Origin: a virus
DNA: 29,962 nucleotides
Strand: one strand, 5' to 3'
IMG/VR virus record: IMGVR_UViG_3300022752_000277
Coordinates: 1 to 29,962 of that record
Below the pieces are notes generated by a model. It saw only the letters and a program-made list of their open reading frames with translations, had not been told where the DNA came from and searched no databases. This document shows positions 10,761-27,714 of the stretch, in pieces (positions within the stretch are counted from its first letter, which is position 1; each line of letters begins with the position of its first letter). Both the position numbers and the translations under genes were made by a program.

Positions 10761-11608
10761 CCTGACACCACCCCCGCCACGCCGGGCAGCGACTGCCAGC
10801 CGTTGTCGTCCTTGGTGTACAACTTCACCGAGTAGCCGTAACCGATGGTCGTCTCGGGGTTGTCGGCATCGACGTACACGGCCTCGGTGTACGGCTCACG
10901 CGCGTAGACACCAAGGTTCACCGTGTTGTTCGGGACAATGACGTAGACCGGGTTGGATTCACTTTGCCCCGCGAGGTCGGGCATCGGCGTTCCGTTGTCC
11001 TTGACCCATTGGTAGGTGAACTCCCAATCCGTCTGATTGGTCTGGTTCGCATCGCCACCCGCAAAGAGCCAATACGCCCCGCCCAGTTTGTGAAGTTTCT
11101 GGTATTGGTCTGCAATCGCGTTGAACGGGTTGACGATGGTGATATTGGTCGTGCGGATGGTCAGCGTCACCATCTGCCGCTTCTCGCGGACGGTGTATTG
11201 CGTGCCCTGCCAGATCTGTTTGACCGTTGGCGTTGAACCCGAGGAAGGCACGGTCAACTTGCGCCGCGAGACGATCCAGATCTTCGCTTCGGCGGTCTGC
11301 ACCGTGCCCTGCCATGCGTAGTACGTTCCGGGCTTCTTGTCTACCTTCGTCTCGGTAAACGACTCGTTGCTGCTGTATTCGCAACGGATGATGAACGTGC
11401 CATCATCGCGCACGTTGTTCACGCGGCGGTCCAGACGCAGCCCGTTGTCACCGGGGAAGGTGGACCCCAACGCAGGGACATTGGTGTTGTCGGCGTTGCA
11501 TGACGCAGGGTCGCGGTAGTCGGTGTAGAACTCGCGGACGCCGGTGCGTGTGCCCTTGGAGTCAACGCTGAACGTCGCACGCGAAAGGAATGATTCGCGG
11601 ACTGTCAT
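10757..11608 (-). CDS. Minor tail/tip-like structural protein (283 aa)
   Basis: The protein starts MTVRESFLSRATFSV, carries several beta segments (RQMVTLTIRTTNITIV, NPVYVIVPNNTVNLGVYA) and a Tyr-rich C-terminal part (TTIGYGYSVKLYTKD). The start at 11608 overlaps the tape measure stop (ATGA) and has GAGGT six bases upstream. Being the first gene after the tape measure, it fits the distal-tail or tail-tip position of siphoviruses. I do not recognise a specific family, so the call rests on context and composition. Confidence 0.72.
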   Translation of the reverse strand: MTVRESFLSRATFSVDSKGTRTGVREFYTDYRDPASCNADNTNVPALGSTFPGDNGLRLDRRVNNVRDDGTFIIRCEYSSNESFTETKVDKKPGTYYAWQGTVQTAEAKIWIVSRRKLTVPSSGSTPTVKQIWQGTQYTVREKRQMVTLTIRTTNITIVNPFNAIADQYQKLHKLGGAYWLFAGGDANQTNQTDWEFTYQWVKDNGTPMPDLAGQSESNPVYVIVPNNTVNLGVYAREPYTEAVYVDADNPETTIGYGYSVKLYTKDDNGWQSLPGVAGVVSG

Positions 11609-12720
11609 TTGAGACCTCGAATCCCCTGCTCAATGCGCAGGACTTGTTGGCCGAGGTTCTCGATGCTGGTGACAATCTTGGACGAAGAATCAATGTTTGA
11701 CTGCTTGATCGCGTTCGTTGCAGCGTCAAGACGCAACTGTTCGTTGCGTTTGATTTCATCGCGTTCAGCCTGATAGAAACGACGCATTGCCTGTTCAAGT
11801 TTGTTGTATGAGTCAAGTGTTTCTTGAGTTGCACCTTCTTTGTTTTTTTGAATAGCATCAAACGCATCTTGTTCATCAGCGTATGACTTTTCCATTTCGG
11901 TCATACGTCGTTGCGCTGTTTGCTTGTCAAGCTTTTCCGCTTCATCCGCGACATCTTGAGCCTCAGCAAGTTTGATTCGAGAAAACAACGCCTCTCTCTG
12001 TTGCACAACTTGCGGTTTATCAATGCGAGCCTTTGCCTCCATTGATTTTTGCAACGCTTCCCAATACTGCTTGTTGAGGTCGCGTAGTTCTCCGTCCATT
12101 GCCCTTTTTTGTGGGTCTTTGCCAAGTTGATCTTCACGTCGCTTGATTGCTTCGCCAAGCCAGTAAACACGCGCTTCCGCTGCTTTAGCCTCTTCTTTGG
12201 CAAGTTCAACTTGTTTTTGTTTTTTCGCTTCAAAACGTTGATCGTCTACAAGGTCTTTGTAGTCCTCTGCACCAAAGCCGTACATGGTTTTTTTGTTTTG
12301 CTTGCTTAGTGCTGCTAGTCGTTGTTGTAGTCTTTCTCCTTGGGATGCAACGCCCGCAACGCTGTTTCCCATGCGGTCTGACGCAGTGACAACATTTGTT
12401 GCCATCTTCCAAAACTCACGCATACCAGCAACCATTGCCGTGACTGCTGTTAGCGCGATTCCAGCCGTACCAGCAAAGCCAAGAACCGCGCCAAGCGTTC
12501 CTTGGATCGCCTCTCGGAACTCGCGGACGGGCTTGGTGAACTGCTTGATGTCTCGGGCCGTGCCAAGCAAACCCGTATCGACCTGGGCAGCCTTGGAAAC
12601 CTTCTGTGATTCGGTTCGCGTCTCTTGGGCAGCAGCGTTGAATCCGGCCTTGATCTTGCTCCGATCAACGCTGACCTCAATAACCGCATTGGCAATAACA
12701 CCATTACCGGACGGAGGCAT
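11605..12720 (-). CDS. Probable short tail tape measure protein (371 aa)
   Basis: The N-terminus VIEVSVDRSKIKAGFNAAA is typical of tape measure proteins. Then come a hydrophobic segment at roughly 70-100 (LGAVLGFAGTAGIALTAVTA) and a long charged coiled coil through the rest. At 371 residues it is short; using the usual 1.5 angstrom per residue, it would fit a tail of roughly 55 nm. The ATG at 12720 follows AAAGGGGG. Codon choice is unlike the neighbours: from about 11780 to 12320 the DNA is AT-rich (22 G/C of 60 at 11821-11880 and again at 12181-12240), so this coding region may have been acquired separately. A scaffold-like or other coiled-coil tail protein is the alternative. Confidence 0.72.
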   Translation of the reverse strand: MPPSGNGVIANAVIEVSVDRSKIKAGFNAAAQETRTESQKVSKAAQVDTGLLGTARDIKQFTKPVREFREAIQGTLGAVLGFAGTAGIALTAVTAMVAGMREFWKMATNVVTASDRMGNSVAGVASQGERLQQRLAALSKQNKKTMYGFGAEDYKDLVDDQRFEAKKQKQVELAKEEAKAAEARVYWLGEAIKRREDQLGKDPQKRAMDGELRDLNKQYWEALQKSMEAKARIDKPQVVQQREALFSRIKLAEAQDVADEAEKLDKQTAQRRMTEMEKSYADEQDAFDAIQKNKEGATQETLDSYNKLEQAMRRFYQAERDEIKRNEQLRLDAATNAIKQSNIDSSSKIVTSIENLGQQVLRIEQGIRGLK

Positions 12721-13932: not shown

Positions 13933-14403
13933 TTATGGGCTTGTCCTGCTTTGGTGCATTTCAAACGTGACCATCGCAGAGAAGTAATCTCTGTCGCTGG
14001 CGTCCTCTGATCCGGTGTAAACAAGCGTGCCGCCGGTCCATGTACCGACAGCAAGAGTCAAGTTGTGACGGTGCAGTCCGTAACTTGGAACGCCCGACGA
14101 TTGCAGCGTGGCATTGCCGTAGATCCGGTCCAAGATGGTGTCCATGAGGCTCGGCGGGCTGCTGGTCGGAATCCAGACTTGCACTCGCACCGTGACCTTC
14201 AGCACGTCCGACCTGAACGTGTCCTCGATCGCAGCGTCATCGCAAACAAACACGACATACGGCGTCGTCGCACTGGACGGTGCCTCATTGCGATAGACGG
14301 CGGTGATAAGTCCGGGTCCGCCGCCCGTGGCGAACAAAGCACCCGATCCTTGATCGGCCTGCAAGCGTGTGACAATCGCCGTGCAAATGGCGTTGTTATT
14401 CAT
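13933..14403 (-). CDS. Tail terminator / completion protein (156 aa)
   Basis: The N-terminal helix MNNNAICTAIVTRLQADQG, the strand TPYVVFVCDD, the segment VLKVTVRVQVWIPTS and a C-terminal sheet with YFSAMVTFEMHQ follow the layout of the tail terminator (DUF3168 or lambda U-like) proteins. These close the tail tube and join it to the head. It lies between the gp10-like gene (4-base overlap) and the tube gene, the canonical place. GGGGGTG precedes the ATG. Family assignment is from pattern and position. Confidence 0.78.
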   Translation of the reverse strand: MNNNAICTAIVTRLQADQGSGALFATGGGPGLITAVYRNEAPSSATTPYVVFVCDDAAIEDTFRSDVLKVTVRVQVWIPTSSPPSLMDTILDRIYGNATLQSSGVPSYGLHRHNLTLAVGTWTGGTLVYTGSEDASDRDYFSAMVTFEMHQSRTSP

Positions 14404-15008
14404 TTGCGCACCCCCAGCCGTTCGGCAATGCGACGACGGGCATACGTCTCAAACGTCTTGGCAAGACGCGGCCTCGAGCGTGCGAACGCAGGCATGACCC
14501 ACGGGCGAGGCGGGAGCGTCACAGACTTGAGCAGCACAAAGAGCGGAGTGACCGAGCCTTTGCCTGGACCCTTCAGCCGCGAGAATCCCTGCGCCAGAAT
14601 CGGCGGGCGGCCCTTGCGCTTGATCATGAACAGATTGAGCGAACGCACATTGCCGCCGCTGTCGCGGAGTGCTTGGCGTCCCTTGGGACCGATCGGCACA
14701 AGCAGCGATCCGTTCTTCGCCGTGATTGTGCCGCCAAACTCGTGGATTCGCCCATACGGGACGTTCGTACCGACCTGCCGACGCAGGACGCCGGACGACT
14801 TCACGGCCACGCTGTTTCGCAGGCGACCAGTCTGCACGCCCGGCGGCGATCCCGGCGCAGACGATTGATACCGTGCCGTGCGGCTGAATCCGCGCTTCAT
14901 CTCGCCCGCGACCAGTTGCGCAACGGCATCCACGCCGGCCACAAGGCCAGAGATAACAGCCGACTCGAACGGCTGCATTCCACTGAAATCGAGGCGGACG
15001 TTTCTCAC
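14400..15008 (-). CDS. HK97 gp10-like neck/minor tail protein (202 aa)
   Basis: After the start VRNVRLDFSGM the protein shows an alpha-helical N-terminal half, a segment GRLRNSVAV, and the family motif VPYGRIHEFGGTI near the middle, typical of HK97-gp10 and related neck proteins. The C-terminus is basic (ARSRPRLAKTFETYARRR). The GTG at 15008 is preferred: GGAGGAAG lies upstream with good spacing, and it forms a GTGA overlap with the preceding gene. A longer frame to 15263 would be entirely inside that gene. Between the motif and the C-terminus there is an extra basic insertion rich in Pro and Gly. Confidence 0.82.
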   Translation of the reverse strand: MRNVRLDFSGMQPFESAVISGLVAGVDAVAQLVAGEMKRGFSRTARYQSSAPGSPPGVQTGRLRNSVAVKSSGVLRRQVGTNVPYGRIHEFGGTITAKNGSLLVPIGPKGRQALRDSGGNVRSLNLFMIKRKGRPPILAQGFSRLKGPGKGSVTPLFVLLKSVTLPPRPWVMPAFARSRPRLAKTFETYARRRIAERLGVRK

Positions 15009-15352
15009 GTCACTTCCTCCAGTGTCAAGGTTTGCAGAACGCCCTTGCCTGCCGGGTCCATCGACGCACCGACCACGCGGTACGAGATGCCGTTTGCAAT
15101 CACGCGCCAACGCTTCTGAATCGGCGTCACAGTGCCCGTGTCGAGGTCGGGCGGGAAGTAAGCCGTGCTGACACGCAACCCGTCCTCTTTGCCGTAGAGC
15201 AAACGGTCGGTGGACGAAAGAGGCTGGATGGTGCAGCGGACACCCGTGTAGGTGCTTGCCCACGTCACAGACGTACCACCATCAGCACCGACCGTTTCCG
15301 TCGGCGTCTGCACCGTGGCCGTCATGTCAAGAAGGTTGTACGGCGTTTTCAT
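15005..15352 (-). CDS. Head-tail joining / stopper protein (115 aa)
   Basis: A small beta-barrel-like protein beginning MKTPYNLLDMTATVQTP and containing CTIQPLSSTDRLLYGKEDG and VIANGISYRVVGASMDP. This is the layout of the phage head-tail joining (SPP1 gp16 or HK97 gp9-like) family that plugs the connector after packaging. The ATG at 15352 forms an ATGA overlap with the connector gene. Its place between connector and gp10-like genes matches the standard siphovirus order. Confidence 0.83.
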   Translation of the reverse strand: MKTPYNLLDMTATVQTPTETVGADGGTSVTWASTYTGVRCTIQPLSSTDRLLYGKEDGLRVSTAYFPPDLDTGTVTPIQKRWRVIANGISYRVVGASMDPAGKGVLQTLTLEEVT

Positions 15353-21503: not shown

Positions 21504-23882
21504 TTAGTCCTCCTCCTCGATAATCGGTGCAACACCGCAGCGGCATTGCGGATGCAGGTCGCCCCCGTACACGTCGCGGTATGTGATGACGTAATCCGTA
21601 CCAGGAATGCTCTCACCAATACGCCAAAACGGTTCGCCGACGTTCGCCGTCGGCCTCGATGCAATCGCCGCCTCGCACAACGGGCATGGTCCGCCGGCAA
21701 GCAACCATTCCCGCTGCTCAATGCCAGCCCGCTTCATCGCCTCATCCGCGCCACGGTTGCACAGATGCGACACCTCAGACCGTGCAATCCGCTCCGACCG
21801 ATAGCCCGCCTGCTCGCCCAACGCATCGGCAATCGCCCGTGATGCGTCCGTGACCGTCAAACCATCGGCAAGCGTGGCCTTCAACGCATCGTTCAGGTCG
21901 GCTTCCAGCGTGCCCGTGACCTCGTTCGCCAGACGCACGCGGTAGTTGTCCAGTATCCGCAAAGCATCGTCCGGCGTTACGTCCCATGCCGTTCCAAGGC
22001 TCTCGGCTTGCAACTTGCCGCCGTAGGCCAACGCATCCGCCAACGCCTGCGAAACAAGCGAGTTGAACGCCTCGGTTTGACCGTTCAGGTTGATGATCCC
22101 GTCCGGCGTCGCGTGGATGTCACCAGCAACGCCCGCGATCCACTGCTGGATCTTGGACGCCATGCCGTTGACCAGCCGCGTCAACTCGGGCGGGAGTTCG
22201 CCCAGCCGATCGTCCTTGGTCGTCAAGCCGTGGTCGTGGTCGTGTCCGTACCACCATCCGCACTTGGGGATTGCAGCCTTGTACGCATTTCGATGCCGTG
22301 ATTCGCCCACCAGACCTTGCTCGCCACGGTCCAGTTGTGAAAGCCCTCCAGCGTCGGCTCGGGATTGCTCATCTCGGGCGGCGTCGTCGGCCCGCTTTGT
22401 GCCGGATTGTCCTCGGAGATCTTGGACAGAGCCTTGACCGCCAGATGCCTCTCCAGAAGGCGAAACGCCATCGCCAGAGTTACCACCAGAACCGCCGCGT
22501 CCGGCCATGTCAGCATTTTCGTTACCTCGAAACTGTGGTGGAATGACAAAGTTCGTGACCGGCGCAACAGGCTGAGGCGGATTCATCGCCGGGTGATACT
22601 CAGCACCCTCGGGGCCGGGCACAGCCTCCAGACCCATCATCTGCCGTGCTTCATTGCGAGTCACAAGACCAGCCGCAAACGCCGTCGTCGCCTTGGTCGT
22701 CTGCAACGCCTCGTCTTCGCTGACGGGGTTGTCATACGCAAAGAACCACCCGTCGGTGTCGACGTACATCGGCAACAGCGTTTCAGTCAGATACCCAGCG
22801 AAATAGTCGATACGCGGCTTGATGGTCAGTTCGGCGTACTGCGGATTGCCCGCTGCTGCCGATGCCTTGTTGCTGTCCGACAGTTTCCAGATCGTTTCAG
22901 GAATTCCCGCGTGCCGGTAGACCACGGCCTCCAAGCGTTCCTGGCCCTCGACATACGCCATCTCATGCGGCTTGGTGGCGTATTGCACCACCTTCGCACG
23001 CTGGATAATCATGGCGTTGCCTGCGTTGAACACGCCCCGCGTGTCGCGTGCAAGACCTTCCTTGAGTTGCGACAACTGTGCAGGCGATGCGTCAGGGTCC
23101 GCCTCGACCACGATTCCCGGCATACCGCCATTGAGCCAGCGAGACATCTCCGCTTGGATCGCGGCGGCCTCGCAGTCCAGTTCGCGGGCACACTGATACA
23201 CCCACGTCCACCCGTCCCAAGGCATCGCCGGGTGTGGCGTGGCGCGGAAGTACAGCATCTCATCCACGCCGATGTCGATGGCCTCGGCGGTGTTGCGACC
23301 GAAGCGGAACCCGCCGATCATGCTTTGCCGTGACGGGATCACGCGGACGTATTGCGACGGCAACCAAAACAACGCCGTCGGGCCACCGATGCCGCGTTCG
23401 ACGCCTGCGAACGCCTTGCCCGACATCTCGTGCATCCAGTACATCGCCTTGAAGAACGACACGCCCGTCATTTGCGGGTCCGGGTCGCACAACAGGTCAA
23501 TCACGGGATGCGAGACAACCTCTTCAATCTCACCCGCCTGCGATGCCATCACCATCGATTTGATTGCTGGGCGTAGACGCTGTTCTCCGGCCAGGTACGA
23601 CCGCAGATCCTTTGACACGGGCCGCGACTTCCACACGGCGGATGCACCGCGCTTGGGCCTGAATAGACGCAACTTCTGATTCGCACACACCGTCGCCGTC
23701 ATCATCGCAGCGGCAGCCGCTGAACCGACCAATGCACGCGAGACCGTCTCCGTCGCTAGAGCGTTGTAACTCGAATAGCGACTGGTTGCATCTTCGCCGT
23801 ACATAACAGTCGCCGCTGAAACCAGCGGTGTATCAACTGCCTTGCGTTTTGCCACGGCGTCCTTGCGCGGCTTCTTCGCCAT
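21504..23882 (-). CDS. Portal protein fused to a MuF-type minor head domain (792 aa)
   Basis: Residues 1 to about 430 match the HK97-type portal: GKAFAGVERG, WLPSQYVRVI, MLYFRATPHPAMPW, VYRHAGIPETIWKLSDSN and a C-terminal GLVTRNEARQMMGLEAVPG. This forms the DNA gate ring. Residues from about 575 match the phage Mu F / SPP1 gp7 family, with RIARSEVSHLCNRGADEAMK, a CPLC pair (C733, C736) and HPQCRC (C780, C782). Between them (about 456-554) is a Gly/Ser/Asp-rich linker, which overlaps a second reading frame at 22223-22516. GAGGGGTGGTAA before the ATG and the TAAATG junction with terminase fix the start. The two functions are usually separate genes. Confidence 0.9.
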   Translation of the reverse strand: MAKKPRKDAVAKRKAVDTPLVSAATVMYGEDATSRYSSYNALATETVSRALVGSAAAAAMMTATVCANQKLRLFRPKRGASAVWKSRPVSKDLRSYLAGEQRLRPAIKSMVMASQAGEIEEVVSHPVIDLLCDPDPQMTGVSFFKAMYWMHEMSGKAFAGVERGIGGPTALFWLPSQYVRVIPSRQSMIGGFRFGRNTAEAIDIGVDEMLYFRATPHPAMPWDGWTWVYQCARELDCEAAAIQAEMSRWLNGGMPGIVVEADPDASPAQLSQLKEGLARDTRGVFNAGNAMIIQRAKVVQYATKPHEMAYVEGQERLEAVVYRHAGIPETIWKLSDSNKASAAAGNPQYAELTIKPRIDYFAGYLTETLLPMYVDTDGWFFAYDNPVSEDEALQTTKATTAFAAGLVTRNEARQMMGLEAVPGPEGAEYHPAMNPPQPVAPVTNFVIPPQFRGNENADMAGRGGSGGNSGDGVSPSGEASGGQGSVQDLRGQSGTKRADDAARDEQSRADAGGLSQLDRGEQGLVGESRHRNAYKAAIPKCGWWYGHDHDHGLTTKDDRLGELPPELTRLVNGMASKIQQWIAGVAGDIHATPDGIINLNGQTEAFNSLVSQALADALAYGGKLQAESLGTAWDVTPDDALRILDNYRVRLANEVTGTLEADLNDALKATLADGLTVTDASRAIADALGEQAGYRSERIARSEVSHLCNRGADEAMKRAGIEQREWLLAGGPCPLCEAAIASRPTANVGEPFWRIGESIPGTDYVITYRDVYGGDLHPQCRCGVAPIIEEED
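22223..22516 (-). CDS. Nested overlapping gene: single-pass membrane protein (97 aa), candidate
   Basis: This frame lies wholly inside the portal-MuF gene, shifted by one base. The ATG at 22516 has GAGGT about eight bases upstream. The protein starts with a transmembrane helix (DAAVLVVTLAMAFRLL), then an amphipathic, charged helix (ERHLAVKALSKISEDN), a Pro-rich stretch and a Trp-containing part (NWTVASKVWWANHG). Its third codon positions are mostly G or C, as in normal genes here, whereas the portal frame over the same bases reads low-complexity Gly/Ser/Asp with many A or T third positions. It may be a lysis, holin-like or anti-host protein. It could still be a fossil of a formerly separate gene. 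Confidence 0.55.
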   Translation of the reverse strand: MLTWPDAAVLVVTLAMAFRLLERHLAVKALSKISEDNPAQSGPTTPPEMSNPEPTLEGFHNWTVASKVWWANHGIEMRTRLQSPSADGGTDTTTTTA

Positions 23883-26698: not shown

Positions 26699-26968
26699 CT
26701 AGTGCCCTCCCGTCGGTGTCCTTGGGTTACGCAACCACTCGATGACCATGCCACCGATCGCAGCACCAGCACCAGCGGCAACGGTCCCGATGCCAGCCAT
26801 CGCCCAGCCGATGACGGTGCGATGCTTCTCTTCGATTACGTCAATGCGTGTGCCCTGTGACCTGACCCGATCCACCAGTCCGGGCGGTGCAGTCGGGTCG
26901 AGGTCGTTACCGACGAGGGCACGCTCGATGCGCTCGAGACGCTGGATGATCTCGGCTTGGTCACTCAC
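26699..26968 (-). CDS. Holin-like small membrane protein (89 aa)
   Basis: The protein has an N-terminal coiled-coil-like part (AEIIQRLERIERAL, later RIDVIEEKHRTV) and one C-terminal membrane helix of about 24 residues rich in Ala and Gly (GWAMAGIGTVAAGAGAAIGG). This layout, soluble heptads then a C-terminal anchor, recalls XhlA/holin-type proteins. The GTG at 26968 forms a GTGA overlap with the lipoprotein gene and has AAGGGGG close upstream. Its place next to the lipoprotein and before the packaging genes fits a lysis cassette, but no endolysin is seen, so the role is not settled. Confidence 0.65.
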   Translation of the reverse strand: MSDQAEIIQRLERIERALVGNDLDPTAPPGLVDRVRSQGTRIDVIEEKHRTVIGWAMAGIGTVAAGAGAAIGGMVIEWLRNPRTPTGGH

Positions 26969-27648
26969 GCCGCCCCCTTGCGGTTGGCGGCTTCCTCCCA
27001 TGTGCTATCAATCTTGGCCTGGTGTTCGTCGCGTTCGTTCCAGCCGATGTCACGGCCCTTGGCGATGCCGATCTGCTCGCCGGTGGCCTTGCCGGTTCGA
27101 CGACCGACGTAGCCCGTCACGGCTGCCAGACCAAGGGCGATGAGCGGGTTCGTGCCCACGCCGGGGATGTTCGGGACGACGCCGAGGACCGTGTTGATAA
27201 GGTCGTTCTGCGCGTCGATCTTCGCTTGGGCTGCTTTAGCCTTGGCGTTCAGGTCTTCGATCTTGGCTTGTGCAGCGGTTGACGCGGCTTGGATGCTTGC
27301 TTGAAGCGTGGTCAGGCTTGCGTTGATCTTGTCGGTAGATGCGTCTTGGTCGATGCCGAGTTGCTCAATCTTGGCGGCTGCGTCGTTCTGGACGGCACGC
27401 ACCTTGAGAGCGAACTGGCGTTCGTTGGCCTTGATCTGTCGTGCGAGTTCACCCGCTTCGGCTTGGGCTGCGGCCTGCTTTGCGCTGGCCTCCGCCTGCG
27501 CCTTGCGGGTTTCTGACTGGAGTTCGATGGCGAGTTCGTCTGCGTTGACCTTCTTGCCGCTGAATGGCGAGACGGTTTCGGCACAGCCGCAGAGGAAGAC
27601 CAGAGACACGACAGACAGACAGACGGAAAGGCGACGTGCAAATGACAT
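26965..27648 (-). CDS. Coiled-coil lipoprotein with C-terminal membrane segment, spanin-like (227 aa)
   Basis: The ATG at 27648 has GGAG eight bases upstream and gives a lipoprotein signal sequence ending in the lipobox LCGC. After the lipidated cysteine come Ala/Gln/Lys-rich heptads over about 130 residues, then a hydrophobic stretch (GVGTNPLIALGLAAVTGYVG) and a polar tail of about 45 residues. A lipidated N-terminus plus a C-terminal transmembrane segment joined by a periplasmic coiled coil is the architecture of a unimolecular spanin, which links and disrupts the two membranes. The polar tail is longer than I would expect. The alternative is a plain lipoprotein of unknown role. Confidence 0.72.
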   Translation of the reverse strand: MSFARRLSVCLSVVSLVFLCGCAETVSPFSGKKVNADELAIELQSETRKAQAEASAKQAAAQAEAGELARQIKANERQFALKVRAVQNDAAAKIEQLGIDQDASTDKINASLTTLQASIQAASTAAQAKIEDLNAKAKAAQAKIDAQNDLINTVLGVVPNIPGVGTNPLIALGLAAVTGYVGRRTGKATGEQIGIAKGRDIGWNERDEHQAKIDSTWEEAANRKGAA

Positions 27649-27685
27649 AAGCGCGGCTCCTGTGAACCACGCTCGTCGCAATGAG

Positions 27686-27714
27686 AGTGTACCCCAATGA
27701 CGAGGACGACTCAA
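27686..27714 (-). promoter_or_regulatory. Candidate promoter upstream of the lipoprotein gene
   Basis: On the minus strand TTGAGT (27714-27709) and TACACT (27691-27686) are separated by 17 bases, about 40 bases before the lipoprotein start. A second candidate lies just upstream: TTGAAA (27760-27755) and TACGAT (27738-27733), 16 bases apart. Both sit in the 108-base gap 27649-27756, one of few real gaps in this block, so a transcript for lysis and packaging genes probably starts here. Confidence 0.45.

What the first reader, a model, noticed from the sequence alone, without database searches (positions are those of the whole stretch)
22223..22516. Nested membrane-protein gene inside the portal-MuF linker
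A 97-codon frame in a +1-shifted register has its own ribosome binding site, a plausible transmembrane helix and G/C-ending codons, while the host frame over the same bases degenerates to Gly/Ser/Asp-rich linker with poor codon bias. This is the signature expected if the inner frame is the one under selection. An overprinted gene within a portal gene would be an unusual way to carry a lysis or anti-host protein.
Basis: partly seen in the sequence, partly recalled or inferred. Interest (0 to 1): 0.75.

Follow-up and report, generated by a model that had tools for sequence, protein, structure and literature searches.

The report
Small gene nested in portal-MuF linker
A phage gene that fuses two head proteins carries, in the flexible linker between them, a second possible small gene read one base out of step; this one is not proven, but two distant relatives hide a conserved small gene in the same linker and frame, so the reading is plausible.

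Summary
On the minus strand, ATG 22516 to TGA 22223 encodes 97 aa in frame +1 of a 792-aa portal-MuF fusion, with a good Shine-Dalgarno and a borderline transmembrane helix. Over it the host frame's GC3 falls from 0.71 to 0.54. It is the best same-strand shadow frame in the window. Much of this could be chance: recoding the linker with the phage's codons keeps +1 open 59% of the time, and local-composition controls weaken the codon signal to P 0.01-0.06. No homologue of the inner protein and no close relative of this phage was found, so per-frame substitution rates could not be tested here. New evidence comes from relatives, in which portal-MuF fusion is common. Among 73 fused linkers, two (L145, L134) hold a conserved +1 nested gene in the same linker: Shine-Dalgarno, inner proteins that align, portal third positions more conserved than first. 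A sister (L099) lacks the segment. AlphaFold2 leaves the portal frame disordered there; the inner frame gives two helices. I rate the window's gene as real at about 0.55. Lysis or anti-host function is unsupported.

The parts
21504..23882 (-). portal-MuF fusion, 792 aa (host ORF)
   Evidence: PF04860 at aa 112-417; PHROG 2662 over aa 118-787 in one stretch; same fusion in most relatives
22632..23549 (-). portal domain
   Evidence: PF04860, E 3.9e-33
22209..22583 (-). linker between portal and MuF domains, disordered in the portal frame
   Evidence: AlphaFold2 pLDDT below 50 for portal residues 434-558
22525..22528 (-). Shine-Dalgarno GAGG, 8 nt before the inner ATG
   Evidence: read directly from the sequence
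22223..22516 (-). candidate nested +1 gene, 97 aa plus stop
   Evidence: open frame; codon score; two predicted helices
22454..22504 (-). hydrophobic segment of the inner protein (residues 5-21), possible transmembrane helix
   Evidence: KD 1.73 over 17 residues; inside predicted helix 4-35
22274..22351 (-). second predicted helix of the inner protein (residues 56-81)
   Evidence: AlphaFold2 single sequence, pLDDT near 85 at its centre
22223..22226 (-). TTGA: inner stop TGA overlaps a TTG in the MuF frame, a possible restart for separate MuF
   Evidence: sequence; no counterpart at the stops of L145 or L134, so possibly coincidence
21507..22226 (-). MuF domain
   Evidence: PHROG 2468 and 115; aligns with separate MuF proteins of relatives

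Best explanation
A small helical protein, probably membrane-associated, is translated from its own internal start (SD 22528-22525, ATG 22516) inside the disordered linker of a continuously translated portal-MuF fusion. Shown: the ORF, the SD, the fusion, the codon shift, the predicted disorder of the host frame, and the same architecture with a conserved inner protein in two relatives. Inferred: that this particular ORF is translated and useful; that a small gene came to lie in the linker by insertion of a segment or by loss of a portal stop, so that the linker frame is the newer one; and that the protein is an accessory membrane protein made together with the head proteins. No specific activity can be assigned.
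For: Best same-strand off-frame codon score in the window; 2 of 20,000 recodings reach it; ORF + SD + hydrophobic segment together in 0.16% of recodings. L145 and L134 hold a nested +1 gene in the same linker, each behind an SD, with proteins that align (E 5e-4). There the identity at portal codon positions 1/2/3 is 0.39/0.49/0.62, the reverse of core (0.67/0.84/0.44) and MuF (0.55/0.67/0.28). L099 lacks the segment but keeps a flank. The portal frame is disordered over the overlap while the inner frame gives two helices. The local-shuffle test that weakens the window's case also fails to recognise L145 and L134 (P 0.14, 0.60), so it lacks power.
Against: No homologue of the inner protein anywhere searched. 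It is not homologous to the L145/L134 protein. The nearest relative of the window, L087 (core 40% identical), has no such ORF. Codon similarity is equivocal. The window's in-linker excess, 13.4, is not clearly above apparent shadows in L091 (11.4) and L070 (11.0). Hydrophobic +1 shadows occur in other linkers (L070, L150, L152, L164). No control shadow ORF was folded.
Confidence: 0.55

Rival explanations
1. There is no gene: the inner ORF is a shadow of a Gly/Ser-rich disordered linker with relaxed codon choice. Gly and Ser codons ending in T, read in +1, give Val and Leu, hence an apparent transmembrane helix.
For: The +1 frame stays open in 59% of recodings. With low-GC3 codon use like the linker's own, P for the codon score is 0.0145-0.03 and for the hydrophobic segment 0.08. 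L070's Gly-rich portal linker has a GC3 drop and a strongly hydrophobic +1 shadow (KD 3.16) broken by stops. No homologue.
Against: Among 99 linker-like coding windows from 15 other contigs none exceeds the window's score. Genuine nested genes occur in the same linker of relatives. An SD at good spacing and two confident helices are not explained by it.
Confidence: 0.37
2. The fusion is not real here: portal, small gene and MuF are three genes, and a portal stop has been lost through an assembly error or a very recent mutation.
For: Portal and MuF are separate genes in L029, L044, L056, L061, L063 and L072. A TAA in the third frame lies just before the inner ATG, and TTGA ends the inner ORF at a MuF-frame start codon.
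Against: Most relatives are fused. If only the inner frame were coding, the portal frame would stay open through it just 3-4% of the time, and its codon score would be as high with P 1e-4 (window-trained) or 0.03 (gene-trained). No small membrane gene stands between portal and MuF in the separate relatives examined.
Confidence: 0.08

Closest known systems
Embedded spanin genes (Rz1 within Rz of phage lambda; PMC6139136)
   Same: Small phage gene wholly inside another, in the +1 frame, with its own start; such genes often go unannotated
   Different: Host gene is a lysis gene there, a head gene here; no lipobox cysteine; the inner protein is unrelated
Overlapping exclusion genes olg1/olg2 of Pseudomonas phage Fc02 (PMC9936078)
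   Same: Small protein in an alternate frame of another phage gene
   Different: Lies in the lysis-lysogeny control region; no sequence or positional relation
Nested +1 gene of L145 and L134 (found here)
   Same: Same host gene, same linker, same +1 frame, SD before it, disordered-looking host frame with low GC3
   Different: Different, apparently soluble protein of 67-77 aa; not homologous to the window's inner protein
Portal-MuF fusions (PHROG 2662; Roos, Exiguobacterium plasmid and OnionKnight portals)
   Same: Host ORF belongs here
   Different: No nested gene was identified in those examined

Membership tests
Portal-MuF fusion (host gene) | Portal domain followed in the same ORF by a MuF domain | tested here: met
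Nested (overlapping) protein-coding gene | Open alternate frame with its own start and SD | tested here: met
Nested (overlapping) protein-coding gene | Codon signal in the alternate frame beyond the host frame's shadow | tested here: inconclusive
   P from 1e-4 to 0.06 by control; similarity test equivocal
Nested (overlapping) protein-coding gene | Purifying selection on the inner frame among relatives | not testable with these tools
   No relative carries the window's inner protein. Met for the different L145/L134 gene
Nested (overlapping) protein-coding gene | Translated product | not testable with these tools
   needs ribosome profiling, tagging or mass spectrometry
Embedded o-spanin (Rz1-like) | Lipobox cysteine in the inner protein | tested here: not met
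   The 97-aa sequence contains no cysteine
Holin / lysis protein | Match to a holin or lysis family | tested here: not met
   No Pfam, PHROG or NCBIfam match
Holin / lysis protein | One or more clear transmembrane helices | tested here: inconclusive
   One borderline segment, KD 1.73

The most novel reading that the evidence does not exclude
The disordered linker of portal-MuF fusions is a recurrent site where unrelated small genes sit out of frame beneath a structural protein (at least two families: window, and L145/L134), so phages of this group carry accessory proteins that ordinary gene callers may skip.
Probability: 0.45. Interest if true: 0.72.

Novelty: new variant of a known kind. Interest (0 to 1): 0.52.

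Why it matters
If real, it adds an essential head gene to the known hosts of nested phage genes, with the overlap falling in a disordered linker that can tolerate it. Such genes tend to be left unannotated. The family offers cases with and without the segment (L145/L134 against L099) in which to study how overlaps arise.

Tried and rejected
Close relatives by peptide patterns of portal, MuF, MCP and the inner protein: none; terminase gave only L002, whose portal is of another kind. Alignment A1 was too divergent to search with. Taking inner GC3 as evidence: rejected, recoded controls give the same value. Apparent off-frame genes in ORF 14400-15263 and in L071, L116, L160, L011, L140, L058, L044 and L051: judged to be ORF ends overlapping a neighbouring gene. 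Weak tblastn similarity of inner residues 51-89 to relatives' capsid proteins (E 0.05 in a small set): treated as chance. Programmed frameshift from portal into the inner frame: not tested systematically, no classical slippery site seen by eye. Fold search with the inner model: skipped, pTM 0.28.

Full report
Observation. The window is a 29,962-base virus record. ORF 21504-23882 (minus) is a portal-MuF fusion: PF04860 at aa 112-417 and PHROG 2662 over aa 118-787 in one stretch, between terminase and prohead protease. In its linker, ATG 22516 opens a 97-codon frame ending at TGA 22225-22223, in +1. GAGG at 22528-22525 lies 8 nt upstream. The stop overlaps a TTG in the MuF frame (TTGA).

Codon evidence in the window. 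Along the portal gene, GC moves from codon position 3 to position 1 between about 22560 and 22250. A codon model trained on the other genes gives the inner frame +16.6 bits, the best same-strand off-frame stretch of 97 codons once a mis-started ORF is excluded (next -1.4). If the portal amino acids are recoded with the phage's codon usage, the inner score is reached 2 times in 20,000, yet the frame is open in 59% of cases and inner GC3 is unchanged, so openness and GC3 carry no weight. ORF>=80 + SD + hydrophobic segment occur together in 0.16%. Allowing the linker its own low GC3 raises P to 0.0145, a local synonymous shuffle to 0.03 (0.06 with a model trained on the gene alone), and the hydrophobic segment to 0.08. 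Codon-usage similarity, in the spirit of the codon-usage method of PMC3744397, is equivocal: inner 0.54, portal frame 0.45, +1 controls mean 0.48 and max 0.63. Conversely, permuting inner codons leaves the portal frame open only 3.5% of the time and reaches its codon score with P 1e-4 (window-trained model) or 0.03 (gene-trained model), so the portal frame is probably read through.

Relatives. No homologue of the inner protein was found and no close phage. A degenerate terminase motif, then portal and MuF alignments, brought in more than 100 related loci. Portal and MuF are fused in most and separate in others. Of 73 fused linkers scored, the window's included, L145 and L134 carry +1 nested ORFs whose proteins align (MVAQPKTMQLKIPQEVLEPIVAKL / MTQPQKMQVKMPKEVIEKMIGQIL; phmmer E 5e-4), each behind an SD. 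On a DNA alignment, identity in the nested stretch is 0.39/0.49/0.62 at portal positions 1/2/3, the reverse of the core (0.67/0.84/0.44) and MuF (0.55/0.67/0.28). L099, 56% identical to L145 in the core, keeps the linker's far flank (HSDIVYK) but lacks the segment. I take these to be genuine nested genes on comparative evidence from two sequences; they are not homologues of the window's ORF.

Placing the window. By in-linker excess of off-frame over host-frame score the order is L145 34.4, L134 13.9, window 13.4, L091 11.4, L070 11.0 (after setting aside by inspection eight ORF ends that overlap neighbouring genes). The last two look like shadows, so the window is not cleanly separated from background. 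L070's Gly-rich linker shows that a GC3 drop and a hydrophobic +1 shadow can occur without a gene. But the local-shuffle test that weakens the window's case also fails to recognise L145 and L134 (P 0.14, 0.60), so its weakness is not evidence against. Among 99 linker-like coding windows from 15 other contigs none exceeds the window's score. AlphaFold2 gives portal residues 434-558 pLDDT below 50, covering the whole inner ORF, while the inner protein alone gives two helices with block means near 85 (pTM 0.28). No shadow ORF was folded as a control.

Interpretation. Most likely (0.55) a small helical, perhaps membrane-associated protein is made from an internal start inside a translated fusion. 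In L145 the inner frame has native codon usage (0.75 against 0.38 for the portal frame), which suggests that there the small gene is the older frame and the linker the newer; L134 points the same way only weakly (0.19 against 0.02), and for the window the direction is a guess. Rz1 embedded in Rz is the nearest precedent in architecture (PMC6139136). No function can be assigned; lysis and anti-host roles are guesses.

Noticed in passing
L145 3128-3361 and L134 665-868 (+): Conserved +1 nested gene in the portal-MuF linker of two relatives (77 and 67 aa), each behind a Shine-Dalgarno; no family match above chance.
   Followed up: partly
L037 6775-8490 (+): MuF gene with what looks like an intein (Hint-like, ...THNCRC) inserted at the conserved NCRC motif; read by eye, not searched.
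   Followed up: no
L002 3794-5749 (+): Portal-like protein of a different kind with an HNH-endonuclease-like insertion in its C-terminal part; read by eye.
   Followed up: no
window 26699-27001 and 26965-27714 (-): A small protein with one hydrophobic segment near its C terminus, and a coiled-coil-like protein with a lipoprotein-like N terminus; better lysis candidates than the nested ORF, but not characterised.
   Followed up: no
window 11605-12720 (-): 371-aa ORF with GC3 0.47 against about 0.73 in most other genes: possibly a recent acquisition.
   Followed up: no
window 22223-22226 (-): TTGA overlap of the inner stop with an in-frame TTG at the start of the MuF domain; could allow a separate MuF product.
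   Followed up: partly
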